From contig JAENWU010000006.1 of NCBI GenBank assembly GCA_016649905.1, positions 1-44,735 of the forward strand: DNA of 44,735 bases, given 5' to 3'. The stretch comes from Thermoleophilia bacterium (lineage in GTDB: Bacteria; Actinomycetota; Thermoleophilia; Solirubrobacterales; 70-9). Below the pieces are notes generated by a model. The model was not told where the DNA came from, did not search any database, and was given only the letters and a program-made list of their open reading frames with translations. The first letter of the stretch is position 1; each line of letters begins with the position of its first letter. This document shows, one piece after another, positions 1,323-41,867 of this stretch. The position numbers and the translations under genes were made by a program.

Positions 1323-1328
1323 AGGCTA
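1323..1328 (-). promoter_or_regulatory. -10 element TAGCCT, leaderless geometry
   Basis: TAGCCT on the minus strand ends 7 nt before the GTG at 1315. Transcription would start at or next to the start codon. It lies back to back with the promoter of the divergent gene at 1373. Confidence 0.5.
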
Positions 1329-1357
1329 TCTGACCGATCGCACCCCACCGCGAACGG

Positions 1358-1363
1358 TAGGCT
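1358..1363 (+). promoter_or_regulatory. -10 element TAGGCT, leaderless geometry
   Basis: TAGGCT ends 9 nt before the GTG at 1373. There is no Shine-Dalgarno sequence between hexamer and start, which supports both the start choice and a leaderless mRNA. Confidence 0.55.
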
Positions 1364-1372
1364 GCCGCGATC

Positions 1373-3052: not shown

Positions 3053-3064
3053 ATGGCGGCTAGC

Positions 3065-3070
3065 TAGACT
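3065..3070 (+). promoter_or_regulatory. -10 element TAGACT, leaderless geometry
   Basis: TAGACT ends 10 nt before the ATG at 3081. It lies in the 28-nt gap after the upstream stop, giving the GT2 its own promoter. Confidence 0.5.
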
Positions 3071-3080
3071 GCCCCGCTCG

Positions 3081-3890
3081 ATGCCGGACGAGGCGCTGAC
3101 CACAGAGCCGCAGGTCACCGATCCGCCTGCGGCGGGCGAGCACGGGGACCGTCCCGAGGGGAAGGTGATCGTGGTGATGCCCGCGATGAACGCCGCCAAG
3201 ACGCTCGAGCAGACCTACCGCTCGATTCCAATGAACTGGGTCGATGAGGTGATCCTGGTCGACGACGCCTCGCGCGACGAGACGGTCGAGCTGGCCAAGC
3301 GGCTGCCGCTGCACGTCGTCTGGCATCCCCACAACGTCGGCTACGGCGCCAACCAGAAGACCTGTTACTTGGAGGCGCTGCAGCGCGAAGCCGACGCTGT
3401 GGTGATGCTGCACCCCGACGGTCAGTACCCGCCGGAGCTGATCCCGGACATGGTCAAGCCGATCCTCAACGGAGAAGCAGACCTCGTCCTCGGCTCGCGC
3501 CTCGCCGTGCCCGGCATGGCCCTGGCCAACGGCATGCCGCGCTGGAAGTACGTCGCCAACCGCTTCCTGACCACGATCGAGAACCGCGTGATGGGCACCG
3601 AACTGACCGAGGCCCACACCGGCTACCGCGCTTACTCGCGGCAGATGCTGCTGACGATCCCCTTCCTGCGCAACGCCTCCGACTTCAGCTTCGACTCCGA
3701 GGTGCTGATGCAGGCCGCCCACTTCCAGATGCGGATCGCCGAGGTGCCGGCGCCGGGCAAGTACTTCGACGACGCCTCCTCGGTCGACTTCTCGACCGGC
3801 GTCGTCTACGGGCTGAAAACGCTCTGGGCGGGTGCCAGGCTGGCCCTGCACCGCTCCGGGCTGGTGCCCTCGAAGAAGTTCAAGGCCTAG
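3081..3890 (+). CDS. GT2 family glycosyltransferase (polyprenyl-phosphate hexose synthase type)
   Basis: 269 aa. GT-A signatures are in order: VVMPAMNAAKTLEQTY near residue 30, ILVDDASRDET near 55, the MLHPDGQYPP metal and acceptor region near 115, and HTGYRAYSRQ near 180. This arrangement resembles dolichyl/undecaprenyl-phosphate glucose or mannose synthases, which move a sugar from NDP-sugar to a polyprenyl phosphate on the cytoplasmic face. No TM helices follow the catalytic domain, so it should be soluble or peripheral. Its position right after the GT-C-like membrane protein suggests donor supply for that enzyme (inference). The exact sugar cannot be read from the sequence. Confidence 0.85.
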   Translation: MPDEALTTEPQVTDPPAAGEHGDRPEGKVIVVMPAMNAAKTLEQTYRSIPMNWVDEVILVDDASRDETVELAKRLPLHVVWHPHNVGYGANQKTCYLEALQREADAVVMLHPDGQYPPELIPDMVKPILNGEADLVLGSRLAVPGMALANGMPRWKYVANRFLTTIENRVMGTELTEAHTGYRAYSRQMLLTIPFLRNASDFSFDSEVLMQAAHFQMRIAEVPAPGKYFDDASSVDFSTGVVYGLKTLWAGARLALHRSGLVPSKKFKA

Positions 3891-3892
3891 GC

Positions 3893-5043: not shown

Positions 5044-5047
5044 GCGC

Positions 5048-5629
5048 TCAGCTGGCCTCAGGCGAAAACGGGGCGCCACTATCGCCCTCGTGCTGCTTGC
5101 GCCGCCGCATCACGACCACCCCGATCGAGATCGCCGCCAGCACCGCGATCGCGATCGCGATCGGAACTACCGGCGAGGATCCGCCGTCGTCGCTCTGCGA
5201 GGAGGCCTGGGTGGCGGTCGGCTGCGAGTTCTGCTGCTTGCCACCGTCGGCCGCCGCGTTCTTCGAGCCGTTGTCTGGGCTACCCTGCGGCTTGTTGCCG
5301 CCGTTGCCCTTGTCTCCTCCACTGGGAGTGCCACCCGAAGTTGAGCCTTCAGATTCCCCAGGATCTTCAGTCGTCACTTCCGGACTCGAGCTCGAGTCCG
5401 GAGTCTTGGGGCTGCCCGAGGTCGTCGCGTCGCCGGTCGGGTCCTTGGCCGGCGGATTGGTTTTCGGCGTGCCGGTAGCCGTGGGCGGGGCGTCCGAGTA
5501 CTGGATACCGCTCGAATCGGCCTGAACCAGGGTTGGAAACGAAACGAATGCGACCAGAGCTGACACTGAAAGAAGCGCCAAGTAAAGGCGGGCCGGACCC
5601 GGGCGCCGGGGGAAAGACGTCCTACGCAT
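5048..5629 (-). CDS. Ser/Thr/Gly/Pro-rich surface-anchored protein
   Basis: 193 aa. An Arg-rich N-terminus and hydrophobic segment ending in TLVQADSSG act as a signal peptide. A low-complexity stretch rich in S, T, G, P, D and N follows (about residues 40-140), then one TM helix (VVPIAIAIAVLAAISIGVVV) and a basic MRRRKQ stop-transfer sequence. The layout is that of a membrane-anchored wall-spanning stalk, plausibly heavily O-glycosylated. No LPXTG motif and no recognised domain were seen. It is cotranscribed with the glycosidase-like gene downstream. The ATG at 5629 is supported by TAGTCT 8 nt upstream, but it makes the CDS overlap the 5' end of the divergent ligase gene. Confidence 0.7.
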   Translation of the reverse strand: MRRTSFPRRPGPARLYLALLSVSALVAFVSFPTLVQADSSGIQYSDAPPTATGTPKTNPPAKDPTGDATTSGSPKTPDSSSSPEVTTEDPGESEGSTSGGTPSGGDKGNGGNKPQGSPDNGSKNAAADGGKQQNSQPTATQASSQSDDGGSSPVVPIAIAIAVLAAISIGVVVMRRRKQHEGDSGAPFSPEAS

Positions 5630-7548
5630 TCCGCGGAAGACTAGACCAACTGGCGGCGTTCGGCGCTCCAGTCGCCCTGATCCTCGGGCTGGCCCTGACC
5701 GGCGGTGGCTTCGACGTGAGCTCGCGACATGTCGCTGGGCTTGCAGTTTGGTTCGTAGTGGTCGGCCTGCTGGTCTTTGGCGCGACCGCGCGGACGACTG
5801 TCGGGCGTCCCCTCTACTGGGCGTGCGGGCTGATCGGTGGCCTGGCGATTTTGTCTGCACTGTCATCCCTCTGGTCGGGTTCGGTTGAGCTCAGCGTGAT
5901 CGAGGCGGACCGAGTACTGGTCTATCTGGGGTTCTTCCTTGCCGCCTTCCTGATCGCCCAAACCACCGAAAGGCGCCAACGTTTCGGCGAAGGCCTGGCT
6001 ATCGCCATAACTCTGGTCTGCCTGCTCGGCCTCGGCAGCCGTCTGCTGCCGCACGTTTTCGAGCTCGAGGACGCGCTTGGGGTCGGCCCGCGGCTGCGCT
6101 ACCCGCTCGGCTACTGGAACGCCAACGGCGCGGTTTGCGGGATCGCGATCGCGATGCTGCTCTGGTCGAGCCGCCGCGCCGGCTGGATCGCGCTGCGCTG
6201 GATCTCGGTCGCGCTGATGCCAGCAGTCTTGCTCTGCCTCTACTTCACCTACTCGCGCGGTGGCGTGCTGTCGCTCCTCGTCGCCGCCGGGATCCTGATG
6301 ATCCTCTCGCGCGAGCGCCTCTGGCTGCTGGCGACCGCCGCGATCGCCCTGCTGGCGACCCTCCCCGCGGTTCTCGCGGTGCAGTCGCGCGGCGCCCTCG
6401 CCGACAATCTGCCGGCCCCGGAGATCACCGACCAGGGCCTCACCGTGCTGGCGATCCTGCTCGGCGGCATCGCCGTCTCGCTGCTGCTCTTCGCCGGCCT
6501 GCGGCGGCTGGAGAGCCGCGCTGGCCGACTGACCGGGCGCGCGGTGACGATGTCGCAGAACCCGACCCTGCTCAAACGCCTTGCGATCGTCGCGTCCGTG
6601 GTCGCGATCGGGCTGGCGATCGCCGTCGGCGGCCGCGCCTGGGACCAGTTCTCGAGCTCGGACATCCAGTTCCCCAAAGACCCCCAGGCGCACTTCGGCG
6701 AGCTCTCCGGCGCCGGTCGCCACGACTTCTGGCGGGTGGCGCTGAAGGGCCTCGGCGAAGAGCCGCTGCTCGGCCACGGCGCCGGCACCTACGAGTTCAC
6801 CTGGGAGCAGCACCGCTCGATCGACATGCCGGTGCACGACGCGCACTCGCTCTACCTCGAGGCCTTCGACGAGCTCGGCGTGGTGGGCGGCCTCCTCGTC
6901 CTCGTCCTGGTCGGCGCCCTGCTCTGGTTCGGTTTCGCCGCCTGGCGCGCTGCGGCCGGCAACGAGCGCGAGCTCTGCGCGGTCCTCTTTGCCGCGATGG
7001 TCGCCTTCGCGATCGGCGCCGCCTTCGACTGGTTCTGGGAGATCGCCGCGATGGGGGCGATCTTCTTCCTCGCCGCCGGTGTCGTGGTAAGTGTGAGGTG
7101 TGCGCAGCTGGCCAAGGAGCGGCCGGCCTCCCGGGTAGACGGGCGGCGCTTCGGCCTCGCCCTGGGCGGGCTCGCCGCCGCCTGGATCACTGCCGTCGCC
7201 CTGGTCGGCCCGCTGCTGGTCGACCGCGAGATCAAGGCCAGCCAAAGCGCCGCCGCCGAGGGCGACATCTCGAGCGCCATCAGCCACGCTGAAACCGCCC
7301 GCTCGATCGAGCCCTGGGCGGCCAGCCCCTACGTCCAGCTCGGCCTGCTCGCCGAGCTGCAGGGAAACTTTCCGAACGCCGCGGCGCGGCTGACCCAGGC
7401 GATCGAGCGCGAGGATCGCAACTGGCAGCTCTACTACCTGCGCGCAAGAGTCCGCGGTGAGTCTGGCGACGCGGCAGCGGCCGAGGCCGACCTCGAACGT
7501 GCCCGGCAGCTGAACCCCCGCGCGCCGGAGCTGCAGGTGACCGAATGA
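5548..7548 (+). CDS. O-antigen ligase/polymerase family membrane protein with C-terminal TPR
   Basis: About 666 aa. There are roughly a dozen TM helices, and a large extracytoplasmic loop near residue 410 holds the Wzy_C-type signature (GAGTYEFTWEQH, then DAHSLYLEAFDELG). After the last helix (about residue 560) comes a helical region with AARSIEPWAASPYVQL and similar units, typical of TPR repeats seen in this family. The protein would polymerise or ligate undecaprenyl-linked glycan outside the membrane. It overlaps the next gene, the initiating transferase, by ATGA. The start is uncertain: ATG 5548 (used here) and TTG 5533 both overlap the divergent gene, and GTG 5716 would lose the first helix. 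Confidence 0.83.
   Translation: MRPELTLKEAPSKGGPDPGAGGKTSYAFRGRLDQLAAFGAPVALILGLALTGGGFDVSSRHVAGLAVWFVVVGLLVFGATARTTVGRPLYWACGLIGGLAILSALSSLWSGSVELSVIEADRVLVYLGFFLAAFLIAQTTERRQRFGEGLAIAITLVCLLGLGSRLLPHVFELEDALGVGPRLRYPLGYWNANGAVCGIAIAMLLWSSRRAGWIALRWISVALMPAVLLCLYFTYSRGGVLSLLVAAGILMILSRERLWLLATAAIALLATLPAVLAVQSRGALADNLPAPEITDQGLTVLAILLGGIAVSLLLFAGLRRLESRAGRLTGRAVTMSQNPTLLKRLAIVASVVAIGLAIAVGGRAWDQFSSSDIQFPKDPQAHFGELSGAGRHDFWRVALKGLGEEPLLGHGAGTYEFTWEQHRSIDMPVHDAHSLYLEAFDELGVVGGLLVLVLVGALLWFGFAAWRAAAGNERELCAVLFAAMVAFAIGAAFDWFWEIAAMGAIFFLAAGVVVSVRCAQLAKERPASRVDGRRFGLALGGLAAAWITAVALVGPLLVDREIKASQSAAAEGDISSAISHAETARSIEPWAASPYVQLGLLAELQGNFPNAAARLTQAIEREDRNWQLYYLRARVRGESGDAAAAEADLERARQLNPRAPELQVTE
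5638..5643 (-). promoter_or_regulatory. -10 element TAGTCT, leaderless geometry
   Basis: TAGTCT ends 8 nt before the ATG at 5629. It lies inside the reading frame of the divergent gene that starts near 5548. Confidence 0.5.
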
Positions 7549-10917: not shown

Positions 10918-10923
10918 AGAGTA
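10918..10923 (-). promoter_or_regulatory. -10 element TACTCT, leaderless geometry
   Basis: TACTCT ends 8 nt before the TTG start at 10909 and decides that start codon. Confidence 0.45.
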
Positions 10924-10953: not shown

Positions 10954-10959
10954 TACAGT
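10954..10959 (+). promoter_or_regulatory. -10 element TACAGT, leaderless geometry
   Basis: TACAGT ends 11 nt before the ATG at 10971. Together with the minus-strand hexamer at 10918-10923 it forms a compact divergent promoter pair. Confidence 0.5.
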
Positions 10960-13565: not shown

Positions 13566-14114
13566 CTACCAGGGCAGCGAGTCGGCGATCTCGGCCAGCT
13601 TCGGCGCGGTCTTGTCGCGCTCGGAGAGCAGCGGCTCGCTGACCTGCCAGTCGACGCCGACGTCGGGGTCGTCCCAGGCGATCCCGCGCTCGGTGTCCGG
13701 GTCGTAGAGGCTGGAGACGAGGTAGGCGACGTCGGCCACCTCGCTGAGCACGACGAAGCCGTGGGCGAAGCCGACCGGGACGAAGAGCTGGCGGTGGCGC
13801 TCGTCGTCGAGCACGTGCCCCTCCCATTCGCCGTAGGTCGGCGAGCCGCGGCGCAGGTCGACGGCGACGTCGAGGATCGCGCCGCGCGGGCAGCGCAGCA
13901 GCTTCGCCTGCCCGGGCTCGGTCTGGAAGTGGAGCCCGCGCAGGGTGTCCCGCGCCGAGCGCGAGTGGTTGTGCTGGACGAACTCGGCGTCGACGCCGAG
14001 CTCGGCCCAGGCGTCGCGGCTGAAGGTCTCGACGAAGAAGCCGCGCTCGTCGCCGTGCACGGCCGGCTCGACCAGGACGACGCCGTCGAGCTTCGTCGGC
14101 AGGCTCGCCGGCAT
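13566..14114 (-). CDS. rmlC: dTDP-4-dehydrorhamnose 3,5-epimerase
   Basis: 182 aa, the usual length. The cupin core includes RGFFVETFSRDAW, RDTLRGLHFQTEPGQAKL with the catalytic His, VAVDLRRGSPTYGEWEG and VGFAHGFVVLSE. It converts dTDP-4-dehydro-6-deoxyglucose to the L-lyxo isomer in dTDP-L-rhamnose synthesis. It starts with an ATG inside the rmlB stop (TGATG), so translation is coupled to rmlB. Confidence 0.95.
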   Translation of the reverse strand: MPASLPTKLDGVVLVEPAVHGDERGFFVETFSRDAWAELGVDAEFVQHNHSRSARDTLRGLHFQTEPGQAKLLRCPRGAILDVAVDLRRGSPTYGEWEGHVLDDERHRQLFVPVGFAHGFVVLSEVADVAYLVSSLYDPDTERGIAWDDPDVGVDWQVSEPLLSERDKTAPKLAEIADSLPW

Positions 14115-15100
14115 CAGGCGCCGAGCTTGCGCCCGTACTGCTTTTCGTAGTACTCGCGGTACTCGCCGGAGCGGATCGGGCCCCACCACTCCTCGTTGTC
14201 GCGGTACCAGGCGACGGTCTTCTCGAGGCCCTCGGCGAAGTGGACCTGGGCCTGCCAGCCGAGCTCGTCGCGCAGCTTGTCGGAGGCGAGCGAGTAGCGA
14301 CGGTCGTGGCCGGGGCGGTCGGTGACGTACTCGATCAGCGACTCGTCGGCGCCGGTCAGCTCGATCACCCGCTTCACCACCTCGATGTTCTCGCACTCGT
14401 CGGGGCCGCCGACGTTGTAGGCCTCGCCGGGGCGGCCGTTCATCAGCACCGTGTGGATGCCGCGGCAGAAGTCCTCGACGTAGAGCCAGTTACGAACCTG
14501 GCGGCCGTCGCCATATACGGGCAGCGAGTCGCCATGCAACGCGTTCAGGGTTATCAACGGGATCAACTTCTCTGGATACTGGCGCGGACCGTAGTTGTTG
14601 GAGCCGCGGACGATCGAGGCCTCGGTGCCGTAGGTGTGGAAGTGGGCGGAGACGAGCAGGTCGCCGGCGGCCTTGGTCGCCGAGTAGGGCGAGGAGGGAT
14701 CCAAGGGCGAGGTCTCGGTGAACGAGCCGGACTCGATCGAGCCATAGACCTCGTCGGTGGAGACCTGCAGGTAGCGCTCGACGCCGAGCTCGCGGGCGGC
14801 GTCGAGTAGGGTGCCGGTGCCGATCACGTGGGTGCGGGCGAAGGCGTCCTGGTCGTCGATCGAGCGGTCGACGTGGGACTCGGCGGCGAAGTTGACGACC
14901 GCGTCGGCCCCCTCCATCGCTTCGCGCACGACCGCGGGATCCTCGATCCCGCCGACCACGAGCTCGGTCCCCTCGGGCAGGTTCTCCTTGCGGCCGGCGT
15001 AGGTGAGCTTGTCGAGGACGACGATCTCGTGCTCGGCGCCGGCGATGCGGACGTAGGTGGAGCCGATGAATCCGGCGGCGCCGGTGACCAGCAGCTTCAC
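14114..15100 (-). CDS. rmlB: dTDP-glucose 4,6-dehydratase
   Basis: 328 aa. The SDR NAD-binding motif GAAGFIGSTYV begins near residue 7. STDEVYGSIESG carries the Asp-Glu pair used in dehydration, YSATKAAGD has the YxxxK catalytic pair, and RGSNNYGPRQYPEKLIP is the family signature. It makes dTDP-4-dehydro-6-deoxy-D-glucose from dTDP-glucose. The GTG start is overlapped by the stop of a 13-codon mini-ORF (GTGA), and no Shine-Dalgarno lies at the right distance. It forms an operon with rmlC and the downstream membrane protein. Confidence 0.95.
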   Translation of the reverse strand: MKLLVTGAAGFIGSTYVRIAGAEHEIVVLDKLTYAGRKENLPEGTELVVGGIEDPAVVREAMEGADAVVNFAAESHVDRSIDDQDAFARTHVIGTGTLLDAARELGVERYLQVSTDEVYGSIESGSFTETSPLDPSSPYSATKAAGDLLVSAHFHTYGTEASIVRGSNNYGPRQYPEKLIPLITLNALHGDSLPVYGDGRQVRNWLYVEDFCRGIHTVLMNGRPGEAYNVGGPDECENIEVVKRVIELTGADESLIEYVTDRPGHDRRYSLASDKLRDELGWQAQVHFAEGLEKTVAWYRDNEEWWGPIRSGEYREYYEKQYGRKLGA

Positions 15101-15138
15101 GGGCGGCGCCCGCGGATCGGGTTCGGTGCTCCTCTCAC
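15097..15138 (-). CDS. 13-codon leader mini-ORF preceding rmlB
   Basis: GTG AGA GGA GCA encodes the start of VRGAPNPIRGRRP. The ORF begins 7 nt after the hexamer TAGATT, so it would be the first thing translated on a leaderless mRNA. Its TGA overlaps the rmlB GTG start as GTGA. The simplest role is to deliver ribosomes to rmlB by termination-reinitiation. Its Arg/Pro content could allow attenuation, but no competing stem-loops were identified. Translation is unproven. Confidence 0.4.
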   Translation of the reverse strand: MRGAPNPIRGRRP

Positions 15139-15145: not shown

Positions 15146-15151
15146 AATCTA
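15146..15151 (-). promoter_or_regulatory. -10 element TAGATT for rmlB, embedded in the upstream stop codon
   Basis: TAGATT ends 7 nt before the mini-ORF GTG at 15138. Its first three bases are the TAG stop (15151-15149) of the upstream GT2. Confidence 0.55.
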
Positions 15152-16099
15152 ACCGAGCGGGGGGTCCACCCCCACCGTCCCCCCTGCTGGTGGCGAGCAG
15201 GCGAGGCGCGCCACCGTGGCGTAGGCGCGGGAGCGGGCGGGGTCGAACGGCCGCCAGTAGAGCGCCCGGACCGCCGCCAGCAGGGCGACGCCGGCGCGCA
15301 GGGCGACCCGCTCGGCGCGGGGCCGGTGCTTGTCGAAGTAGCGGAGCAGGCTGCGGTGGCGGGTGACGATCGCCTCCGGCCGGCTCCAGCTGGCGAAGCT
15401 GGCGCCGCCGACATGCTCGAAGCGAGCCTCGGCGACGTAGGCGATCCGGCCGCGCCCGCGCAGCCGCCAAACCAGGTCGACGTCCTCGAACCAGTAGTAG
15501 AAGCCCTCGTCGAAGCCGCCCAGGGACTCGAAGTCGGCGCGGCGGCAGAGCAGGCAGGCGCCGGCGACCTGCTCGGCGTCCTGACTGCGATCGTGGTCGA
15601 AGTCGAGCATCAGCTGCCGCCGCGAGATCGGGTTGGTGGGCCAGAATCGCTCCAGGCCGGCAAGCAGCGCCAGCTGGCGGGCGAGCGTCGGGAAGCCGCG
15701 GACGGTGAAGCCCACCTGGGGGCTGTCGGTGCCGACGTCGACCAGGCAGCCGCCCGCGGCGGCGTGCGCAGGGCTGGCGGCCAGGGCCTCGACCAGGCGG
15801 GCGATCGCCCCCGGGCGGGCGATCACGTCGCTGTTGAGGAACAGCAGGTACTCGCCGGGGCCCGCAGCCGCCGCCTGGTTGCAAGCCTTGGCGAAGCTCT
15901 CGTTGGCGTCGTTGCGGATCAGGGTCGTGCCCGGGAAGCGCTCGCGGATCGCCGCCTCGGTCCCGTCGGAGGAGGCGTTGTCGACGACCACGCAGGCGAA
16001 CTCGAGCCCCGCGGCCGAGGCCTGCACCGCTTCCAGGCAGCGCAGGGTCAGCTCGCGGGTGTCGCGGGTCGCAATCAGCACGTCGACGCTCCTCGCCAA
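15149..16099 (-). CDS. GT2 family glycosyltransferase
   Basis: 316 aa. DVLIATRDTRELTLRCLEA, VVDNASSDGT, NDANESFAKACNQAA, LFLNSDVIARPGAI and GGFDEGFYYWFEDVDLVWRL give the full GT-A pattern of the rhamnosyltransferase-like GT2 group. The C-terminal part is basic. TTG at 16099 is chosen because GAGGGG, one of the few clear Shine-Dalgarno sequences here, lies between the previous stop (16108-16110) and this codon. It is third in a three-gene unit with the GT2 at 16108 and the methyltransferase at 17103. Confidence 0.85.
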   Translation of the reverse strand: MARSVDVLIATRDTRELTLRCLEAVQASAAGLEFACVVVDNASSDGTEAAIRERFPGTTLIRNDANESFAKACNQAAAAGPGEYLLFLNSDVIARPGAIARLVEALAASPAHAAAGGCLVDVGTDSPQVGFTVRGFPTLARQLALLAGLERFWPTNPISRRQLMLDFDHDRSQDAEQVAGACLLCRRADFESLGGFDEGFYYWFEDVDLVWRLRGRGRIAYVAEARFEHVGGASFASWSRPEAIVTRHRSLLRYFDKHRPRAERVALRAGVALLAAVRALYWRPFDPARSRAYATVARLACSPPAGGTVGVDPPLG

Positions 16100-18085: not shown

Positions 18086-18091
18086 ATACTA
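18086..18091 (-). promoter_or_regulatory. -10 element TAGTAT, leaderless geometry, next to an IS end
   Basis: TAGTAT ends 8 nt before the GTG at 18077. The IS boundary and its putative target duplication (18113-18116) lie where the -35 region would be. Confidence 0.55.
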
Positions 18092-18259: not shown

Positions 18260-19498
18260 TCAGGCCGGCCGCCGGGCTTTTGGGTCAAGCCGCTCCAGGG
18301 TGAGGAAGCCGTGAGCGGCGCTGACCAGCGCGGTGTGGTGGTGCCAGCCCAGCCAGGAGCGGCCCTCGTAGTGATCGAGGCCGAGCTCGCCCTTCAGCTG
18401 GCGGTAGTCGAGCTCGATCTTCCAGCGCAGCCGCGCCAACCGTGCCAGGCGCTCCGGCTCGGTGTCGGCGGGTAGGTTCGAGAGCCAGTAGTCGGTGGGT
18501 CCCTCAGCGCCCTCGGGCCACTCGGCGATCAGCCACTCCTCGGGTGGGGGAGAAGATCGCTTCTGCCACTCGTGGGAGGCGCTCACCCGCGCGAATACGA
18601 AGCGCGAGCTGACCGGCTCGCCATTGGGGCCGTCGCGAAAGGCGACGGTCTGGGCCTGGCTCGGCCCGATCCGCTCGATCAGCGCACCGATCGACTCGGG
18701 CGCTCGGTCGGGCTGGGGACGAGTGCGTGGCCGGCCCGTCTTGCCTTTGCGCTCGGGCACCTCAAAGGAGGTCTCGGCCTCAAACACCGCGACCTGCGGG
18801 CTGACCGAGAGCACGTACTCGCTGTCCGCAGCGTGCAGGCGCCGGCGAAGGTCGGTGTTCTCCCCGTAGGCGCAATCGCCCAGCAGCGGCGCGGCGGGAA
18901 TCCCCCAGCCCGCCGCCCGCTCGACCAGCTCGACCCCCAGCTCGGGCTTCGTCTTAAAGGTGACGTGCTCGGGAATCTTCGCCCCGGCGCGCCGCTCGGG
19001 GTCCTCGCACCACTCCTGCGGCAGGTAAAGCGCCCAGCCCAAAGGCACCGTCCCCTTGGCGCCGACCGCGTGCACCGACACCCCGATCTGGCAGTTGCCG
19101 ATCTTCCCCAGCGTCCCGGAGTACTGGCGTTTGACCCCCGGCGAGCGCTTGCCGTCCTTGGGAAAGCCGGTGTCGTCGAGCACCCACGCCTCAACCTCGA
19201 TCTCAGGCGCCACCCGCTCGGCGCTCGCGCGCACCACCGACGCCGGGTCCCACGGGCTCACCGCGAGGAAGTTCTGCAAGCTCTCGTAGTCCGCCTCCCC
19301 ACCGAGCCGCGCGACCATCGGCTCAAGGGACTTGCGAGCGCCCTGCTCGATCAACCCACGCAGATACAGCCCGCCGTTGAGGAGCTGGACCGGGCGGTTC
19401 ACCGCCTCCGACAGCACCTCCGAGGCGAACGCCTCAAGGCGCTCTCGCACCGCCGCCGGCCCGTCCACATCTACGTCCACTGCCGCCATCACCGCCAT
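18260..19498 (-). CDS. IS701-family DDE transposase, with possible -1 frameshift extension to 18135
   Basis: 412 aa in the main frame. WVLDDTGFPKDG (about 105-116) gives the first catalytic Asp, followed by the family signature RQYSGTLGKIGNCQIG. GDCAYGENTDLR near 208 gives the second Asp, and the KIELDYRQLKGELG to HYEGRSW block (about 360-382) holds the Glu. ATG 19498 follows GGAGGG at 5-nt spacing. Near the end, the codons read C CCA AAA at 18278-18284, a canonical -1 slippery heptamer. The -1 frame then runs 47 codons to a TAA at 18135, carrying KCWGGRCQTCRRH, and stops 8 bp from the terminal repeat. The element may use frameshifting or may have lost one base. Confidence 0.9.
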   Translation of the reverse strand: MAVMAAVDVDVDGPAAVRERLEAFASEVLSEAVNRPVQLLNGGLYLRGLIEQGARKSLEPMVARLGGEADYESLQNFLAVSPWDPASVVRASAERVAPEIEVEAWVLDDTGFPKDGKRSPGVKRQYSGTLGKIGNCQIGVSVHAVGAKGTVPLGWALYLPQEWCEDPERRAGAKIPEHVTFKTKPELGVELVERAAGWGIPAAPLLGDCAYGENTDLRRRLHAADSEYVLSVSPQVAVFEAETSFEVPERKGKTGRPRTRPQPDRAPESIGALIERIGPSQAQTVAFRDGPNGEPVSSRFVFARVSASHEWQKRSSPPPEEWLIAEWPEGAEGPTDYWLSNLPADTEPERLARLARLRWKIELDYRQLKGELGLDHYEGRSWLGWHHHTALVSAAHGFLTLERLDPKARRPA

Positions 19499-25805: not shown

Positions 25806-27289
25806 CCGGTCCCGACCCCCAGCTGGAGCAGTTCGAGGCCGCCGCCCTCCCCGAGGTCGGCGGGCTGGGGGAATCGACGGCGCGCGGCGTCTCGCTGCTG
25901 GTCGGCCGGACCCTCGGCTTTCAGCTGCTGACGATCGGGGTCACGCTGGTCCTGGCGCGACTGCTCACCCCGGCGGACTACGGCCTGTTCGCGATCGCGC
26001 TCTCGGTCCAGCTGGTCGGTCAGAACGTCGCCGAGCTCGGCCTTCCCGCCGCTCTCGTACGGTTGCCCAGCACTCCATCGCAGAGCCTGCAGAGCTCGAC
26101 GATCGGCTTCCTCCTGGTCGTCACCGTGGCCGTCGCCGCCGGGCTCTGCGCGATCGTCTTTGTGCTGGTTCCGCTGCTCGGCGGTTCGAGCGAGGTCCTG
26201 CGCGTGATCGCCATCACCCTGCTGGCGCTGCCGCTATACGCGGTCCGCGCGGTGCCGATGGCGATGATGGACAGGGAGATGAGCTTCGGCCGGGTCGCGG
26301 CCGTCGAGGCGGCCGACACGATCGGCTTCAACCTCTTCGCGCTGGCGGCGGCGGTGGCGGGGCTCGGCGTCTTCAGCCTTGCCGGCGCGGTCCCCTTCGG
26401 CGCCGCGCTCGGCGTCTGCATGGCGTGGTCGATCCAGCCCTCGGCGCGGCGGCCCAGCTTTCACTTCGCGCCGGTCCGGCGGCTGATCGGCTTCGGCAGC
26501 AAGGTCAGCGTGCTGGGCGTCCTCTACCTCGGCCGCGACCTCGGCTTCGTCACGATCATCGGCGCCGTCGCCGGCGCCCCCGTCGCCGGCTTCTACGCGA
26601 TGGCCAAGCGCCTCTTCTCGTTCCCGACGGCGCTGGCCGCCGCCGTTTCCCGGGTCACCTTCCCCGCCCTCAGCCAGTCCGATGAAGAGCGGCCCGAGCG
26701 GACCGCGCGAATCATCGCCGAGATCGGGTTCGTCTGCGGCCTGCCGCTCGCCTTGGTCGCCGGCGCGGTTCAGCCCCTGATCATGGTGATCCTGGGGAGC
26801 GAGTGGCTGCCGGCCGCCGACATAGTCCTCTTCGGCTCGCTCTCACTGATGCTGTCGGCGGCGCTGGCTTCGCCGATCAACAGCTTCTTCCTGTCGGAGG
26901 GAAGGCCCAACGCCGCGATCGTCGCGATCGGCCTCGAGCTGACGATCAGCTTCCTGCTCGTAGCGGCCCTGCTCGGCAGCCTTGACGAGACGGGCGTCGG
27001 CATCGCGATGTCGGTCGGCTCGCTGGCGGCGGTCGCGGTCCTGCTCGCGACCACCCACCCAACCGTGCGCGCCGGCGCCGCCGGGGTCGTCCAGACCAGC
27101 GCGATCGCATTCGTCGCCGCCGCGGCCGGGCAGCTTCTGCCGGTTTCGGACGATCTCGTCGGCCTGATCGCGTCGCTGCTGGTCGTCGGCGCGGTCTGGA
27201 CCGTGCTGGCGGCGATCTTCGCCAGGCGGGAGATGACTCAGGTGGCAGGGATGATGCGCAGCCTGGTCTCCTCCTGGCGGGCCGGCTAG
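25802..27289 (+). CDS. MOP-superfamily polysaccharide flippase (Wzx-like), no canonical start codon
   Basis: About 495 aa with twelve to fourteen TM helices. ARGVSLLVGRTLGFQLLTIG opens the first helix, LTPADYGLFAIALSVQLVGQ is a typical motif after it, and FYAMAKRLFSFPTALAAAVS lies in the middle. The protein would flip undecaprenyl-linked repeat units across the membrane. The reading frame has no ATG, GTG or TTG between the upstream stop and about 26060, past the first helices. The only candidate fitting the operon's overlap style is ATA at 25802, which overlaps the upstream TAG as ATAG. ATT at 25796 and CTG in the next few codons are alternatives, and a base error is possible. The 3' end shares CTAG with rmlD. 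Confidence 0.85.
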   Translation: MAGPDPQLEQFEAAALPEVGGLGESTARGVSLLVGRTLGFQLLTIGVTLVLARLLTPADYGLFAIALSVQLVGQNVAELGLPAALVRLPSTPSQSLQSSTIGFLLVVTVAVAAGLCAIVFVLVPLLGGSSEVLRVIAITLLALPLYAVRAVPMAMMDREMSFGRVAAVEAADTIGFNLFALAAAVAGLGVFSLAGAVPFGAALGVCMAWSIQPSARRPSFHFAPVRRLIGFGSKVSVLGVLYLGRDLGFVTIIGAVAGAPVAGFYAMAKRLFSFPTALAAAVSRVTFPALSQSDEERPERTARIIAEIGFVCGLPLALVAGAVQPLIMVILGSEWLPAADIVLFGSLSLMLSAALASPINSFFLSEGRPNAAIVAIGLELTISFLLVAALLGSLDETGVGIAMSVGSLAAVAVLLATTHPTVRAGAAGVVQTSAIAFVAAAAGQLLPVSDDLVGLIASLLVVGAVWTVLAAIFARREMTQVAGMMRSLVSSWRAG

Positions 27290-28137
27290 CCCGGCGACCT
27301 CTCCGCTTCGCGTTGGGCGAGGTAGCCGGCCAACCCGTCCTGCCAGGAGGGCAGCCGGATCGCGTGCTCGCGCTGGCTGGTCAGGGCCGAGAAGGCCGGG
27401 CGCGGCGCCGGGGCGGCGTATTCCTCGCTGGTGATCGAGAGCACGTGGCAATCGACCTTGGCCTGCTCGAAGATCTCGCGGGCGAACTCATACCAGGAGC
27501 ATTGCCCGGCGGCCGCCATGTGGTGGATGCCGTACTCGATCCCCTCGATCAGCCTGACGATCCCGTAGGCGAGGTGCCAGGTGTAGGTCGGCGAGCCGAT
27601 CTGGTCGCGGACCACCGTGACCTCGCTCTGACCCTCCGCCAGGCGCAGCATCGTCGCCACGAAGTTGCCGCCGCCGATCCCGAAGAGGCCGGCCGAGCGG
27701 ACCACGTAGTGGCGCTTGTTGGCGGCCGCGGTCGCCTCCTCGCCGGCCAGCTTGGTGCGGCCGTAGGCCGAGAGCGGCGCCGGCTGGTCGCTCTCCGCGT
27801 AGGGCGCGCCCTTGGCGCCGTCGAAGACGTAGTCGGTGGAGACGTAGACGACGCCGGCGCCGACCGCGGCGGCGGCCGCGGCGACATTGCCGGCGCCGGT
27901 CCCGTTGCAGGCGAAGGCCTCCTGCTCGGCCTGCTCGGCGCCGTCGACCTGGGTCCAGGCGGCACAGTTGATGACCATGTCGGGCCGCTCGAGATCGATC
28001 TTCTTGTCGACGGCGGCGGCGTTGGTGACGTCGAGCTCGGCGCGGCCGAAGCCGACCACGTCGTGACCGGCGTTGCCGGCGGCGAGCATCACGTCACGCC
28101 CGAGCATCCCGGCAGCGCCCGCTACCAACAGCTTCAA
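27286..28137 (-). CDS. rmlD: dTDP-4-dehydrorhamnose reductase
   Basis: 283 aa. The NAD(P)H-binding motif GAAGMLGRDVM is near residue 7. CAAWTQVDGAEQ, YVSTDYVFDGAKG, SAYGRTKLAGE with the Tyr/Lys pair, and RSAGLFGIGG are the family signatures. It performs the last step of dTDP-L-rhamnose synthesis. The TTG start at 28137 overlaps the stop of a five-codon mini-ORF that itself begins inside the rmlA stop. Its own stop shares the palindrome CTAG with the convergent flippase. Confidence 0.95.
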   Translation of the reverse strand: MKLLVAGAAGMLGRDVMLAAGNAGHDVVGFGRAELDVTNAAAVDKKIDLERPDMVINCAAWTQVDGAEQAEQEAFACNGTGAGNVAAAAAAVGAGVVYVSTDYVFDGAKGAPYAESDQPAPLSAYGRTKLAGEEATAAANKRHYVVRSAGLFGIGGGNFVATMLRLAEGQSEVTVVRDQIGSPTYTWHLAYGIVRLIEGIEYGIHHMAAAGQCSWYEFAREIFEQAKVDCHVLSITSEEYAAPAPRPAFSALTSQREHAIRLPSWQDGLAGYLAQREAERSPG

Positions 28138-29235: not shown

Positions 29236-29241
29236 AGGCTA
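29236..29241 (-). promoter_or_regulatory. -10 element TAGCCT for rmlA, embedded in the upstream stop codon
   Basis: TAGCCT ends 8 nt before the rmlA GTG at 29227. Its TAG is the stop codon of the upstream flippase (29241-29239), the same design as in front of rmlB. Confidence 0.55.
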
Positions 29242-35619: not shown

Positions 35620-35625
35620 ATGCTA
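35620..35625 (-). promoter_or_regulatory. -10 element TAGCAT, leaderless geometry
   Basis: TAGCAT ends 8 nt before the ATG at 35611, ruling out the longer upstream frame as the start. Confidence 0.55.
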
Positions 35626-35686: not shown

Positions 35687-35692
35687 TAGTTT
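35687..35692 (+). promoter_or_regulatory. -10 element TAGTTT, leaderless geometry
   Basis: TAGTTT ends 7 nt before the GTG at 35700, which is also the codon that gives a clean signal peptide. Confidence 0.6.
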
Positions 35693-37640: not shown

Positions 37641-37646
37641 ACGCTA
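37641..37646 (-). promoter_or_regulatory. -10 element TAGCGT, leaderless geometry
   Basis: TAGCGT ends 7 nt before the GTG at 37633. Confidence 0.5.
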
Positions 37647-37657: not shown

Positions 37658-38212
37658 CTACGCGACCGCGAACCCGGCGTGGCGGCTGCCGAAGTGGGCG
37701 ACGAGGTCGGGGTCCAGCCGCGTCCCGGCTTCCCGGTGCAGGATCTCCAGCGCCCGGGCGCGGCTTACCGCCCGCCGATAGGGGCGGTGGGACGTCAGCG
37801 CGTCGAAGGTGTCGACGACGGCGAGGATGCGGGCGCCGAGCGGGATCGCCGCCCCCGCCAGCCCGTCGGGATAGCCGTCGCCGTCGAAGCGCTCGTGGTG
37901 GTGGCGGACGAAGGCCGCCAGATCGGGATCGCCGAGATCGGAGACCATCGCCGCCCCGGTCGCGGGGTGCTGGCGCACGAGCCGCTCCTCCTGCGGGGTC
38001 AGCGGACCCGGCTTGTTGAGGATCGAGCCGGGTACGCAGGCCTTGCCGATGTCGTGGACGACGCCGGCCCGCGCCAGCCGTATCTCCTCCTCATGGGAGA
38101 GCCCGATGCCGCGCGCCAACTCGGCGGCATAGCCGGCCACCCGGCGCGAATGACCGGCGATCCCAGGGACCCTCCCCTCCAGCGCGACGGCGAGCCTTTC
38201 CAGCGCCTGCAT
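37658..38212 (-). CDS. Stand-alone HD-GYP domain protein (predicted cyclic-di-GMP phosphodiesterase)
   Basis: 184 aa made almost only of the HD-GYP domain. His21 lies in GHSRRVAGYAAELA, HD is at residues 53-54 in AGVVHDIGKACVPG, and HHERFDGDGYPDGL (about 105-118) carries the GYP signature. No sensor or receiver domain is present. Its action would lower cyclic-di-GMP, a messenger often tied to exopolysaccharide control, which would fit this locus (inference). GGAGG precedes the ATG at good spacing, so this is one of the few genes with a Shine-Dalgarno. Confidence 0.9.
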   Translation of the reverse strand: MQALERLAVALEGRVPGIAGHSRRVAGYAAELARGIGLSHEEEIRLARAGVVHDIGKACVPGSILNKPGPLTPQEERLVRQHPATGAAMVSDLGDPDLAAFVRHHHERFDGDGYPDGLAGAAIPLGARILAVVDTFDALTSHRPYRRAVSRARALEILHREAGTRLDPDLVAHFGSRHAGFAVA

Positions 38213-38243
38213 TCCCCCTCCGTTCCCGTGTACGTCTCATTTG

Positions 38244-38249
38244 TAACAT
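38244..38249 (+). promoter_or_regulatory. -10 element TAACAT, leaderless geometry
   Basis: TAACAT ends 9 nt before the ATG at 38259. It lies 32 nt upstream of the divergent HD-GYP start. Confidence 0.5.
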
Positions 38250-38258
38250 GGCTGCCCG

Positions 38259-39237: not shown

Positions 39238-39310
39238 CGCGGTGTGAGACGCCCGCTCTCGGCGCACCGCGCCATGTCGGCCGCCGCCAGGGGCGGGGTG
39301 GGGGGTTTCG

Positions 39311-39436
39311 CTAGTCCATCGTCTCCCCGGTCGCCTCCGGCCCCGAGCCGCCGAACCAGCCGAACGGCTTCTGGGCGCCGTGGGCGAAGAAGAGGGAGCC
39401 GATGAACAGGCGGGCGAGGAGGCGGCCGAGCTTCAT
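39311..39436 (-). pseudogene. Truncated DoxX-family protein (41 codons)
   Basis: The frame starts MKLGRLLARLFIGSLFF and continues with AHGAQKPFGWFGGSGP, the first helix and signature of DoxX membrane proteins. It stops after GETMD, where full-length members continue for about 90-100 more residues with three helices. No continuation is found in the next bases in any frame. It lies downstream of the acylase on the same strand, next to the repeat-rich gap, so a deletion or rearrangement probably removed its 3' part. Confidence 0.6.
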
Positions 39437-39470
39437 TGGCCGCCGGCTACCCGGGCAGCCGAACGGCGAA

Positions 39471-41855
39471 TCAGGACTGCGGTACTAGCTCCAGCTCGCT
39501 CCACGGCCCCTCGCCGCACATCGGTTGGGTGCGGCCCTCGAGCCAGTCGGGCTGGAGGTCGTCGTAGTGGGGGCTGGCGGGATGGCCGGACTGGCCGGTG
39601 AACATCTGCCAGCGCGAGCGGTCGGGGTCGTTGGGGTCGGCGATCATCCGCCAGCTCGGGCCCCAGACGGCGCGGTAGGGATCGTTGGGGTCGTAGGCGA
39701 TCTGGCTGACCGTCTCCTGGGCGCCACCGGCACGCAGGCGGCGGTTGAGGAAACGTCGCAGCAGCGGGTTGGCGTCGCCGAGCGGGTGCGGGAACTCCAT
39801 TTCGTGCACGCGGCCCCAGCGCCAAGCCTCAGGGTCGGCCCCGAAGCGCTCCTCGAGGTCATCGAGGGCGCCGGCCAGCGCCTCCAGCACGAGCGAGTGC
39901 CAGGAGCGGCCGATCAGCGTCTCGTCGCCTTCCTCCCAGAGGTCCATCAGGTGCGAGTGCCAGCGCCAGGGCGAGGTCGAGTGCGAGGTGAAGCCGTTGT
40001 CGGCGCGGTCGAGCCAGCGCTCGGCGAGGTCACGGTCGCCGATCGCCGCCCGCGCCGTCTCCCGCGCCAGCCGCAGCAGGAAGGCCTGGTAGATCGTGCC
40101 GGCGATCGTCTCCGGGTCCAGCCGCCCGTCCCAGCTGCGCAGCCGCTCCAGGGCGCTGCGCTCGCGCTGGCCCGGCGGCGAGAGGCGGCCGAGCCGGCGC
40201 GCCGCCTCGATCCCCGGCAGCGAGAGGTTGTCGGTCTGAATCGCCTCGAAGCTGTCGAGGTCGTGGCGCTCGCTCCCCTCCAGCAGTTCTTCGATCCGCT
40301 TGGCGCGGTAGCCGTCGAGCCACTCGCTGGTGATGTGGTGTGGGTAGTCGTCGCCGACGATGCGGTTGTTGGCGGTGATCAGGAAGCCGCTCTCGGGATC
40401 GACCACCTCGGGCAGCTCCTCGTAGGGGATCGTCCCCTCCCACTCGAACTCGCCCGTCCAGCCCGGCTTCGGCAGGTCTGGGCAGTTGCCCCGGCGCAGC
40501 GGCAGGCGGCCGATCAGCTTGTACCCGATCGAGCCCTGGCGGTCGGCCCAGATCATGTTCGAGGCCGGTGAGGTGTGCCCCTCGAAGCGGCGCACCAGCT
40601 CCGGGCCGGAGTCGATCTCGAGCTGCTCGAACATCGCCGCGAAGGCGGTCGGTTCGTCGAGCGTCTTCCAGCGCAGCGCCAGCGGCTCGGCCTCGTCGGC
40701 GCCGAGCGCCTCGTTGACGATCGGGCCGTGGTGGGTGCTGCGAACTACGAGCTCGACCGGCTCGGCGCCCTTGACGGGGATCTCCTCGCGCACCGTCTCC
40801 AGCGCCAACCAATCCTCCTCGAAGAGGTAGGTGTCGCCGTCGACGCGCTCGACGAAGAGGTCCTGGATGTCGCCCATCACGTTGGTGATCGTCCAGGCGA
40901 CGTCGTTGTTCTGGCCCATGTAGACGCCGGGCATCCCCGGCATCGAGGCGCCGCGGACGAAGCGCTCGCCGTGGCGCAGGCTGACCTCGTACCAGATGCC
41001 CGGCATGCTCGGGGGCAGGTGCGGGTCGCCGGCGATCAACGGCGTGCCGGTCGCCGAGCGGGCGCCGGAGACGGCCCAGTTGTTGGAGCCGCTGGCCTCG
41101 GCGGCGAGCCCCATCGAGCGCCGCACGGCGTCGATCTGGCCGACGATCGAGAGCCCGTCGCCGCTCCAGGCACCCTGGGTGACGACCGGGTTGTCGGCCG
41201 GGTAGGTCGGGTCGAGGCGGGCGGTCAGCTCGGGGCCGAGCTCGCGCAGCATGTCCGCCCGCAGCAGCTCCCGCTCCCAGTTGGTCGAGAGGCCGAAGGC
41301 GAGCAGCTTGCCGAGGCTGAGGATGTCGACCGGTCGCCACGGCTCGAACTCGAGCCCCAGCAGCCGCATCTCGAACGGCGGCGCCTTGGCCTGGGCCGCG
41401 GCGGCGTTGACGCCCTCGCAGAAGCGCTCCAGGTGCGCACGCAGGACCGGGTCTAGGGCCGCCTCCTCACGCTCGGCGACGCGGCGGATCCCCAGCGTCC
41501 GCAGCAGCCGGTCGACCGGCAGACCCTCGGCGCCGGCCATCTCGGCGACCCGGCCGCGGACGACACGGCGGTAGAAGTCCATCTGCCAGAGCCGGTCCTG
41601 CGCGTGGCAGAAGCCCTCCGCGAAGTAGAGGTCGTGGCGGGAGTCGGCGTCGATGTGGGGGACGCCCCAACGGTCGCGGCGGACCCGCACACTCCCCTCG
41701 AGCCCGTCCAACTTGATCTCGCCCCGCACCTTCGGCAGCGGCCGCCGCGCCATCAGGTGCCAGGCGGTCGCGGCGGAGGCGGCGGCGAGCCCGGTCCCGG
41801 CGACGCCGGCCAGCAATCCAACCCGTGCCGTCCGACTATCGCTCAAACGTCCCAT
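39471..41855 (-). CDS. Penicillin acylase family Ntn-hydrolase
   Basis: 794 aa. An N-terminal hydrophobic segment (about 11-34) is a signal or anchor. The alpha part has GVPHIDADSRHDLYFAEGF. GSNNWAVSG marks autocatalytic cleavage before Ser257, the nucleophile, followed by PLIAGDPHL and MGQNNDVAWTITN. The beta chain extends to the end. The family hydrolyses amides such as beta-lactams or N-acyl homoserine lactones; the substrate here is unknown. The ATG is 6 nt after TACACT, and a 16-bp palindrome lies over the -35 region. Confidence 0.92.
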   Translation of the reverse strand: MGRLSDSRTARVGLLAGVAGTGLAAASAATAWHLMARRPLPKVRGEIKLDGLEGSVRVRRDRWGVPHIDADSRHDLYFAEGFCHAQDRLWQMDFYRRVVRGRVAEMAGAEGLPVDRLLRTLGIRRVAEREEAALDPVLRAHLERFCEGVNAAAAQAKAPPFEMRLLGLEFEPWRPVDILSLGKLLAFGLSTNWERELLRADMLRELGPELTARLDPTYPADNPVVTQGAWSGDGLSIVGQIDAVRRSMGLAAEASGSNNWAVSGARSATGTPLIAGDPHLPPSMPGIWYEVSLRHGERFVRGASMPGMPGVYMGQNNDVAWTITNVMGDIQDLFVERVDGDTYLFEEDWLALETVREEIPVKGAEPVELVVRSTHHGPIVNEALGADEAEPLALRWKTLDEPTAFAAMFEQLEIDSGPELVRRFEGHTSPASNMIWADRQGSIGYKLIGRLPLRRGNCPDLPKPGWTGEFEWEGTIPYEELPEVVDPESGFLITANNRIVGDDYPHHITSEWLDGYRAKRIEELLEGSERHDLDSFEAIQTDNLSLPGIEAARRLGRLSPPGQRERSALERLRSWDGRLDPETIAGTIYQAFLLRLARETARAAIGDRDLAERWLDRADNGFTSHSTSPWRWHSHLMDLWEEGDETLIGRSWHSLVLEALAGALDDLEERFGADPEAWRWGRVHEMEFPHPLGDANPLLRRFLNRRLRAGGAQETVSQIAYDPNDPYRAVWGPSWRMIADPNDPDRSRWQMFTGQSGHPASPHYDDLQPDWLEGRTQPMCGEGPWSELELVPQS

Positions 41856-41861
41856 CTGAGG

Positions 41862-41867
41862 AGTGTA
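41862..41867 (-). promoter_or_regulatory. -10 element TACACT, leaderless geometry
   Basis: TACACT ends 6 nt before the ATG at 41855. Confidence 0.5.

What the first reader, a model, noticed from the sequence alone, without database searches (positions are those of the whole stretch)
1323..41867. Leaderless transcription appears to be the main initiation mode across the window
Fourteen start codons are preceded by TANNNT ending only 6-11 nt upstream: 1315, 1373, 3081, 5629, 10909, 10971, 15138, 18077, 29227, 35611, 35700, 37633, 38259 and 41855. In DNA of about 70% GC the pattern has a chance of about 0.003 per position, so this clustering is not expected. Shine-Dalgarno sequences are clear for only a few genes (the transposase, the HD-GYP gene, the GT2 at 16099). 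The pattern also decides several non-ATG starts.
Basis: partly seen in the sequence, partly recalled or inferred. Interest (0 to 1): 0.75.

Follow-up and report, generated by a model that had tools for sequence, protein, structure and literature searches.

The report
Promoters sitting directly on start codons
In this uncultured actinobacterium about a third of genes appear to have their promoter placed so that the message begins at, or a few letters before, the start codon; this is a known habit of actinobacteria, here seen in a little-studied class, and the genome also seems to clear that promoter motif out of places where it would fire by mistake.

Summary
The motif is real. All 14 TANNNT hexamers lie where stated, 6-11 nt before a start codon, and are 14 of only 49 TANNNT in the window. 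With starts chosen by coding signal alone, 9 of 36 window genes carry it (0.47 expected). In 41% of the genome 162 of 930 starts do, against 15 of 10,531 internal start codons. The organism is a Thermoleophilia MAG. A mixture model gives about 34% leaderless, 41% Shine-Dalgarno (a soft figure) and 26% neither, so "main mode" is not established; leaderless leads for genes with a divergent neighbour or a 30-100 nt tandem gap. Site 15138 is not a start of the gene there: it opens a 13-codon ORF overlapping rmlB's start. The rmlA motif is kept in 25 of 27 relatives. Best reading: -10-only sigma70 promoters giving leaderless or near-leaderless mRNAs, as in mycobacteria. Unexpectedly, TANNNT is depleted 2.4- to 2.9-fold in genes on both strands and on the antisense strand of intergenic DNA, and RbpA was not found in the own genome or eight other Thermoleophilia searched. 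No 5' ends were mapped: leaderlessness itself is inferred.

The parts
1323..1328 (-). -10 TAGCCT, d=7 before GTG 1315 (start of a membrane-protein-like ORF whose coding frame changes between about 1075 and 955)
1358..1363 (+). -10 TAGGCT, d=9 before GTG 1373 (559 aa, no Pfam match)
   Evidence: held-out L 0.95
3065..3070 (+). -10 TAGACT, d=10 before ATG 3081 (GT2)
   Evidence: held-out L 0.95
5638..5643 (-). -10 TAGTCT, d=8 before ATG 5629 (193-aa Ser/Gly/Pro-rich protein with C-terminal hydrophobic segment, 5629-5048)
   Evidence: not called by the coding model
10918..10923 (-). -10 TACTCT, d=8 before TTG 10909 (GT2)
   Evidence: held-out L 0.38 for this gene
10954..10959 (+). -10 TACAGT, d=11 before ATG 10971 (GT2)
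   Evidence: held-out L 0.39 for this gene
15146..15151 (-). -10 TAGATT, d=7 before GTG 15138
15097..15138 (-). 13-codon leaderless-type ORF whose TGA overlaps the GTG start (GTGA) of the rmlB-like gene 15100-14114
18086..18091 (-). -10 TAGTAT, d=8 before GTG 18077 (methyltransferase)
   Evidence: held-out L 0.92
29236..29241 (-). -10 TAGCCT, d=8 before GTG 29227 (rmlA-like nucleotidyltransferase); motif at d 5-13 in 25 of 27 usable relatives
   Evidence: held-out L 0.94
35620..35625 (-). -10 TAGCAT, d=8 before ATG 35611 (GT2)
   Evidence: held-out L 0.98
35687..35692 (+). -10 TAGTTT, d=7 before GTG 35700 (glucose/sorbosone dehydrogenase)
   Evidence: held-out L 0.88
37641..37646 (-). -10 TAGCGT, d=7 before GTG 37633 (PNPOx family); TANNNT at d 6-8 in all 5 same-genus relatives fetched (7 had a match)
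   Evidence: held-out L 0.95
38244..38249 (+). -10 TAACAT, d=9 before ATG 38259 (DJ-1/PfpI); no TANNNT or TANNNA found near the start in 8 relatives fetched
   Evidence: held-out L 0.95
41862..41867 (-). -10 TACACT, d=6 before ATG 41855 (penicillin amidase family); 5 of 5 same-genus relatives fetched have a hexamer at d=6, TANNNT in 2 and TANNNA in 3
   Evidence: held-out L 0.79

Best explanation
The hexamers are -10 elements of the housekeeping sigma70-type polymerase that mostly work without a recognisable -35 box. When a -10 ends 6-9 nt before the start codon, transcription begins at the A or G of ATG/GTG or 1-3 nt upstream, giving a leaderless or near-leaderless mRNA that the ribosome reads from its 5' end without a Shine-Dalgarno sequence. 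About a third of genes are built this way; the rest use Shine-Dalgarno or neither signal. Because a bare -10 suffices, stray TANNNT are removed by selection from genes (both strands) and from the non-promoter strand of intergenic DNA. Shown here: motif, position, enrichment, conservation at three window genes, depletion elsewhere. Inferred: sigma70 recognition, the 5' ends, SD-free translation, and selection as the cause of the depletion.
For: TANNNT at d 6-10: 162 of 930 coding-only starts, vs 15 of 10,531 internal in-frame and 10 of 3,793 out-of-frame start codons. Top of all 64 XYNNNZ motifs, 111 vs 9.7 expected at d 5-10 in 610 genes. Mixture model on 914 genes: 413-nat gain over a model without it, L 33.8%; seven column-permuted decoys take 4.6-13.7%. 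Fitted distance: d=6 32%, d=7 32%. Same signal in five Thermoleophilia samples (fitted 31-41%; with own matrix 25-40% vs decoys 2.7-12.5%). Negative controls with the own matrix: S. meliloti pSymB 5.9% (decoys 4.2-11.7%), Paenibacillus pool 5.7% (8.4-13.1%). Positive control D. deserti P1, annotated starts: 21 vs 4.2 expected of 150, peak at d=6. rmlA motif in 25 of 27 relatives while flanks differ; PNPOx gene 5 of 5 same-genus fetched; amidase 5 of 5 at d=6 if TANNNA is allowed. TANNNT depleted in own genes on both strands and in all phases (Markov ratio 0.39, other 63 motifs 0.92-1.13); tandem intergenic DNA 1.01 on the sense strand, 0.42 on the antisense strand, convergent 0.49, divergent 1.06.
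Against: No transcript 5' ends were available. No clear -35: TTGAC shows no peak, though TTG rises slightly at gaps 19-20 (6 and 5 of 162 sites, about 1.5 at other gaps). The PfpI promoter is absent in 8 of 8 relatives fetched, and the PNPOx motif in 3 of 10. Ortholog pairs: own L-class genes keep strict TANNNT in only 9 of 37 (3 of 54 for the other classes). Decoys absorb up to 14%, so 34% may be high. Two very GC-rich relatives show no depletion (1.30+-0.28 and 1.59+-0.30, on 27 and 36 sites). D. deserti run through my own caller gave only 7 vs 2.0 in 76 genes, and its L share (17.3%) was not above its decoys (8.7-28.1%).
Confidence: 0.88

Rival explanations
1. The pattern is a start-picking artefact: in GC-rich DNA a reader free to choose among many starts finds TANNNT somewhere.
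For: 15138 is not the start of the gene there.
Against: Starts chosen by coding signal alone give 9 of 36 in the window (0.47 expected) and 162 of 930 genome-wide, with a sharp distance peak; decoy motifs do not.
Confidence: 0.03
2. TANNNT near starts is a promoter, but many mRNAs begin a few nt upstream (short leaders) or also from a second upstream promoter, so translation is not strictly leaderless.
For: Seven of the 14 window sites have d of 8 or 9 and two have d of 10-11; 23 of the 25 rmlA relatives with the motif sit at d 8-12, which would give a leader of a few nt.
Against: Genome-wide 64% of the fitted weight lies at d 6-7. A leader of a few nt leaves no room for a Shine-Dalgarno sequence at working distance, so the class is much the same in practice (inference).
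Confidence: 0.3
3. For rmlB the TAGATT promoter drives a leaderless 13-codon ORF, and rmlB is translated by termination-reinitiation at the GTGA overlap rather than by its own signal.
For: GTG 15138 with d=7; its TGA overlaps the GTG of rmlB; little SD signal at 15100 (held-out S 0.15). In several relatives rmlB seems to follow the upstream gene with no gap or overlapping codons (my reading of the DNA printed). The RTGA-coupled leaderless small ORF is described in mycobacteria (PMC4633059, passages).
Against: Not seen in the relatives. Genome-wide 3 of 8 such ORFs end in RTGA vs 400 of 2,476 for other motifs, Fisher p 0.13; 5 of 8 end within -4..+5 vs 575 of 2,476.
Confidence: 0.5

Closest known systems
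Leaderless ('TA-led') genes of Actinobacteria, Zheng et al. 2011 (PMC3160421; abstract, sections 7 and 16 and passages seen)
   Same: TAnnnT about 10 bp before the start in high-GC genomes; mean 19.2% of genes in 86 of 89 actinobacterial genomes, range 2.3-29.8.
   Different: Estimate here about 34%, by another method with start re-selection, so not strictly comparable. 'thermoleophil', 'rubrobacter' and 'conexibacter' do not occur in its main text; which genomes its set held was not seen.
Leaderless transcriptomes of M. tuberculosis (PMC3898074, passages) and S. coelicolor (PMC4895711, passages)
   Same: TANNNT without a conserved -35 in M. tuberculosis; leaderless for 26% of genes with a primary TSS there and 21% of primary TSSs in S. 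coelicolor.
   Different: Those are measured 5' ends. Here no RbpA was found.
RTGA-coupled leaderless small ORFs, Shell et al. 2015 (PMC4633059, passages)
   Same: Leaderless short ORF whose TGA overlaps the next start: the 15138/15100 arrangement.
   Different: One case in the window; the excess in this genome is not significant.
Purging of spurious -10 motifs, Froula and Francino 2007 (PMC1939733; start of abstract in a listing, and passages)
   Same: Selection removes sigma70 -10 motifs from non-regulatory DNA.
   Different: Here TANNNT is down to 0.31-0.36 of expectation in genes of the own genome, one same-genus and one same-family genome, the lowest of 19 sets compared; its magnitudes were not compared with mine.

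Membership tests
Leaderless (TA-led) genes of bacteria | -10-like TA signal at a fixed short distance before the start codon | tested here: met
   162 of 930 coding-only starts, peak d 6-7; mixture model
Leaderless (TA-led) genes of bacteria | Signal not found at internal start codons or in controls outside the group | tested here: met
   15 of 10,531 internal starts; pSymB and Paenibacillus at or below decoy level
Leaderless (TA-led) genes of bacteria | Transcript 5' end at the start codon | not testable with these tools
   no RNA data
Leaderless (TA-led) genes of bacteria | Translation without Shine-Dalgarno | not testable with these tools
   sequence shows only that the nine well-supported window L genes have SD posteriors of at most 0.04
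Mycobacterial-type -10-only promoters | TANNNT without a conserved -35 | tested here: met
   no TTGAC peak among 162 sites; a slight rise of TTG at gaps 19-20, 11 of 162
Mycobacterial-type -10-only promoters | RbpA present (helps open-complex formation in mycobacteria) | tested here: not met
   0 matches in own genome; 0 of 9 genomes of the own class and 10 of 100 of the phylum sample; the MAG is 92% complete
Mycobacterial-type -10-only promoters | CarD present | tested here: inconclusive
   two PF02559 matches, one in a 1,525-aa frame and one in a 325-aa frame; neither was examined further
RTGA-coupled leaderless small ORF | Leaderless-type short ORF with TGA overlapping the next start codon | tested here: met
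   15138-15097 over 15100; expression not testable

The most novel reading that the evidence does not exclude
Thermoleophilia run a sigma70 promoter system in which the bare -10 hexamer, mostly without -35 and without RbpA, is enough to start transcription. Leaderless initiation is therefore the commonest way to begin a divergently placed transcription unit, and in this family selection has stripped some three fifths to two thirds of TANNNT from genes on both strands and about as much from the non-promoter strand between genes.
Probability: 0.45. Interest if true: 0.6.

Novelty: new member of a known kind. Interest (0 to 1): 0.45.

Why it matters
Thermoleophilia are common in soils and mostly uncultured (recalled), and the searches named below turned up no transcript-start data for them. 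If a third of their genes are leaderless, gene callers that ignore the signal will misplace starts: in the sampled 41% of the genome 39 in-frame upstream starts carry it that a coding-only choice missed, against 7-21 for ten decoy motifs; 41855 is one of them. The strand-specific depletion of TANNNT gives a simple genome-only measure of how far a bacterium relies on bare -10 promoters.

Tried and rejected
Tried and weak or rejected. -35 search: no TTGAC peak, a slight TTG rise at gaps 19-20. De novo single-motif EM from six random seeds: four ended on a blend of the -10 and SD signals (AggaT. or tAggaT), one on .GAgga, one on .gTcGa, none on clean TANNNT; the two-motif model was seeded with TANNNT and AGGAGG. 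SD decoys: the four column-permuted ones took 31-44% and the reverse complement 11% or 6%, so the SD share is soft. Leaderless micro-ORF coupling as a genome-wide rule: suggestive only. Synonymous codon shuffle for the depletion gave 0.21, but the same null gives about 0.58 for TA..T at the other in-frame spacings tested (6-18), so I dropped 0.21 and use the Markov ratio 0.39 and the spacing contrast 0.35. With free fitting, the control sets drifted to unrelated motifs, so the own matrix held fixed is the control used. C. metallidurans pMOL30 gave only 4 called genes and was dropped as an EM control. Rows left out: in rmlA, L185 (contig edge) and L208 (N run) of 29; in rmlB three of 30 loci lacked the anchor motif.

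Limits. The gene caller is home-made. The own sample is 1.196 Mb of 2.916 Mb: mostly the first 20 kb of contigs in numbering order, further stretches of some long contigs, C100 and the window, so not a random draw; it holds 13,180 N. Comparison genomes are samples of about 120-200 kb. The names rmlA, rmlB and rmlD are assigned by me from Pfam matches and conserved N-termini.

Literature. Searches: leaderless with TANNNT and Actinobacteria, Thermoleophilia, Solirubrobacter (two of three terms sufficed, 8 of 290 listed, none of the 8 with that word), Streptomyces, Deinococcus, coupling, Rubrobacter (5 papers, listing only), Acidimicrobi (0 papers), spurious promoters, RbpA/CarD (listing only). 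One paper held both leaderless and Thermoleophilia (PMC10783764, passages); its Thermoleophilia row lists an anti-SD type. S. meliloti leaderless numbers were seen in passages of PMC3616915. The role of RbpA and CarD in mycobacteria is from the start of the abstract of PMC5302886 in a listing and from recall.
Full report
What was checked. The window is contig 175 of a 2.92 Mb, 212-contig genome of estimated 92% completeness. The window is a polysaccharide-type cluster with many GT2 glycosyltransferases, rml-type sugar genes, polymerase-like and flippase-like genes.

The observation. All 14 hexamers lie at the stated places with d = 6 to 11 nt between the last T and the start codon. To avoid circular choice of starts I wrote a gene caller that uses coding signal only. 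In the window 9 of 36 genes have TANNNT at d 6-11 by that choice, 0.47 expected.

The genome. In 1.196 Mb (91 pieces, 985 genes, 930 with clean upstream) the counts by distance are 3 at d=5, 55 at 6, 52 at 7, 20 at 8, 27 at 9, 8 at 10, against about 2 per position far upstream. At d 6-10 the share is 162 of 930 starts (17.4%), against 0.14% of internal in-frame and 0.26% of internal out-of-frame start codons. Of 64 XYNNNZ motifs TANNNT is 11.4-fold up and the next is 2.0-fold (610 genes). A two-motif mixture model that also chooses the start gives leaderless 33.8%, SD 40.5%, neither 25.7% of 914 genes. For the leaderless motif seven permuted decoys take 4.6-13.7%. For the SD motif the reverse complement takes 5.7% or 11.4% (smaller sample), but four purine-rich column permutations take 31, 31, 36 and 44%, so the SD share is soft. 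At posterior over 0.8 there are 206 leaderless, 202 SD and 59 neither. By neighbourhood the leaderless and SD shares are 43 and 35% (divergent, n=323), 44 and 35% (tandem gap 30-100, n=134), 29 and 40% (tandem gap over 100, n=157), 22 and 51% (gap under 30, n=291). Leaderless is thus a large minority mode. The motif is TAgnnT; there is no TTGAC peak, only a slight rise of TTG at gaps 19-20.

The 14 sites one by one. A model trained without the window gives leaderless class posteriors of 0.79-0.98 for nine of the 14 starts: 1373, 3081, 18077, 29227, 35611, 35700, 37633, 38259 and 41855. The genes of 10909 and 10971 get 0.38 and 0.39. 1315 and 5629 were not called with those starts: 1315 opens a membrane-like N-terminus, but the GC-richest codon position moves to another frame between about 1075 and 955; 5629 opens a 193-aa low-complexity protein with a hydrophobic C-terminal segment. 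15138 is out of frame with the epimerase. It opens a 13-codon ORF ending in TGA that overlaps the GTG at 15100, where the protein begins VKLLVTGAAGF. In several relatives rmlB seems to follow its upstream gene with no gap or overlapping codons (my reading of the DNA printed), so the mini-ORF may stand in for that coupling; this is inference.

Conservation. Upstream of rmlA the hexamer (TAGGGT, TAGGCT, TAGCCT, TATGCT and others) is present at d 5-13 in 25 of 27 usable relatives from genus to order, while TANNNT averages 0.04 per sequence in the 55 hexamer positions from -90 to -30 of the anchor. The two exceptions are L210 and L212. For the PNPOx gene I fetched 10 of the 25 relatives with a match: 5 of 5 same-genus and 7 of 10 overall have TANNNT, at d 6-12. 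For the amidase I fetched 5 of the 16 relatives with a match, each of the same genus: 5 of 5 have a hexamer at d=6, TANNNT in two and TANNNA in three. For PfpI I fetched 8 of 17: 0 of 8. In an ortholog test over three genomes, L-class genes keep strict TANNNT at the nearest start in 9 of 37, other classes in 3 of 54. The signal is thus conserved as a system, and gene by gene at some loci only.

Relatives and controls. The same signal appears in G002 (genus), G014 (family), G040 (order), G066 and G068 (class): 17 vs 1.5, 35 vs 1.8, 15 vs 0.7, 12 vs 1.3 and 14 vs 0.7 expected, in 163, 178, 114, 102 and 80 genes. Negative controls: S. meliloti pSymB 2 vs 2.3, Paenibacillus pool 0 vs 8.0. A pool of Streptomyces, Planobispora, Actinomadura and Streptosporangiaceae: 5 vs 1.7, own-matrix L 21% vs decoys 5-11%. 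Positive: D. deserti P1 annotated starts 21 vs 4.2; with my caller 7 vs 2.0, and its L share of 17% is not above its decoys of 9-28%. Streptomyces SAP1 annotated starts 2 vs 0.7 of 45, too few to judge.

Depletion. Within own genes TANNNT is rare on both strands and in all phases: 395 observed vs 1,006 by phase-specific maximal-order Markov, ratio 0.39, while the other 63 motifs lie at 0.92-1.13. Against the same letters at spacings 6-18 the ratio is 0.35+-0.02; it is 0.36 in G002, 0.31 in G014, 0.61 in G068, 0.61-0.76 in four other actinobacterial sets (one partly Solirubrobacterales), 0.63 in Thermus, 0.80-0.85 in D. deserti, pMOL30 and E. coli, and 0.97-1.09 in pSymB, M. extorquens, Paenibacillus, Lachnospiraceae and a small Chloroflexota set. 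Against this reading, G040 (1.30+-0.28) and G066 (1.59+-0.30), at 75-77% GC, show no depletion, on 27 and 36 sites. In intergenic DNA between tandem genes the ratio is 1.01 on the sense strand and 0.42 on the antisense strand of the same DNA, 0.49 between convergent and 1.06 between divergent genes; the ATNNNT control is 0.85-0.92. A strand-specific loss is hard to explain by base composition or codon use and fits removal of stray promoters, a known kind of selection (PMC1939733).

Mechanism. Sigma70-type polymerase binds TANNNT, mostly without a -35; start sites 6-7 nt past the hexamer fall on the A or G of the start codon (d=6 or 7) or 1-3 nt before it (d=8, 9). Ribosomes then start on a 5'-terminal AUG or GUG. 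These steps are inferred. In mycobacteria RbpA and CarD help open promoters (recall and abstract start in a listing). Here RbpA is not found in the own genome nor in any of 9 genomes of its class (own included), and in 10 of 100 of the phylum sample, while two PF02559 (CarD/TRCF family) matches exist.

Verdict. The motif and its excess are real. Leaderless or near-leaderless initiation for about a third of genes is the best reading (0.88). 'Main mode' is not established. The kind is known; the class is new to it only as far as the searches named in Tried and rejected show. The depletion and the lack of RbpA are the parts most worth following.

Noticed in passing
whole own sample; coding and intergenic: TANNNT is depleted 2.4- to 2.9-fold in genes on both strands and on the antisense strand of tandem intergenic DNA, but not on the sense strand.
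   Followed up: partly
G000 and class-level genomes: RbpA (PF13397) not detected in own genome nor in the 8 other Thermoleophilia searched; 10 of 100 genomes of the phylum sample have it.
   Followed up: partly
window 955-1315 (-): The coding frame changes between about 1075 and 955 in the gene that starts at 1315: an assembly error or a broken gene.
   Followed up: no
window 5048-5629 (-): 193-aa protein rich in Ser, Gly and Pro with an N-terminal and a C-terminal hydrophobic segment; overlaps the called start of the O-antigen-ligase-like gene on the other strand.
   Followed up: no
window 14114-15138 (-): rmlB-like gene far from the window's rmlD-like gene (27286-28107), with a 13-codon ORF overlapping its start; in several relatives a gene that reads like rmlD ends just before rmlB (my reading).
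   Followed up: partly
own sample: Distance counts 55, 52, 20, 27 at d 6, 7, 8, 9: a dip at 8 and small rise at 9, possibly noise.
   Followed up: no
own sample, 162 TANNNT sites at d 6-10: TTG rises slightly at 19-20 nt before the hexamer (11 of 162 sites), perhaps a -35 remnant in a few promoters.
   Followed up: no
G040 and G066 samples (75-77% GC): Leaderless signal present but no depletion of TANNNT in genes; the motif is already very rare there.
   Followed up: no
window 37658-38212 (-): HD-domain gene with a strong SD (held-out S 0.96) lies between the PNPOx and PfpI genes; in three relatives (G002, G005, G010) those two are close divergent neighbours without room for it.
   Followed up: no
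window 18260-19450 (-): DDE-superfamily transposase inside the polysaccharide cluster.
   Followed up: no
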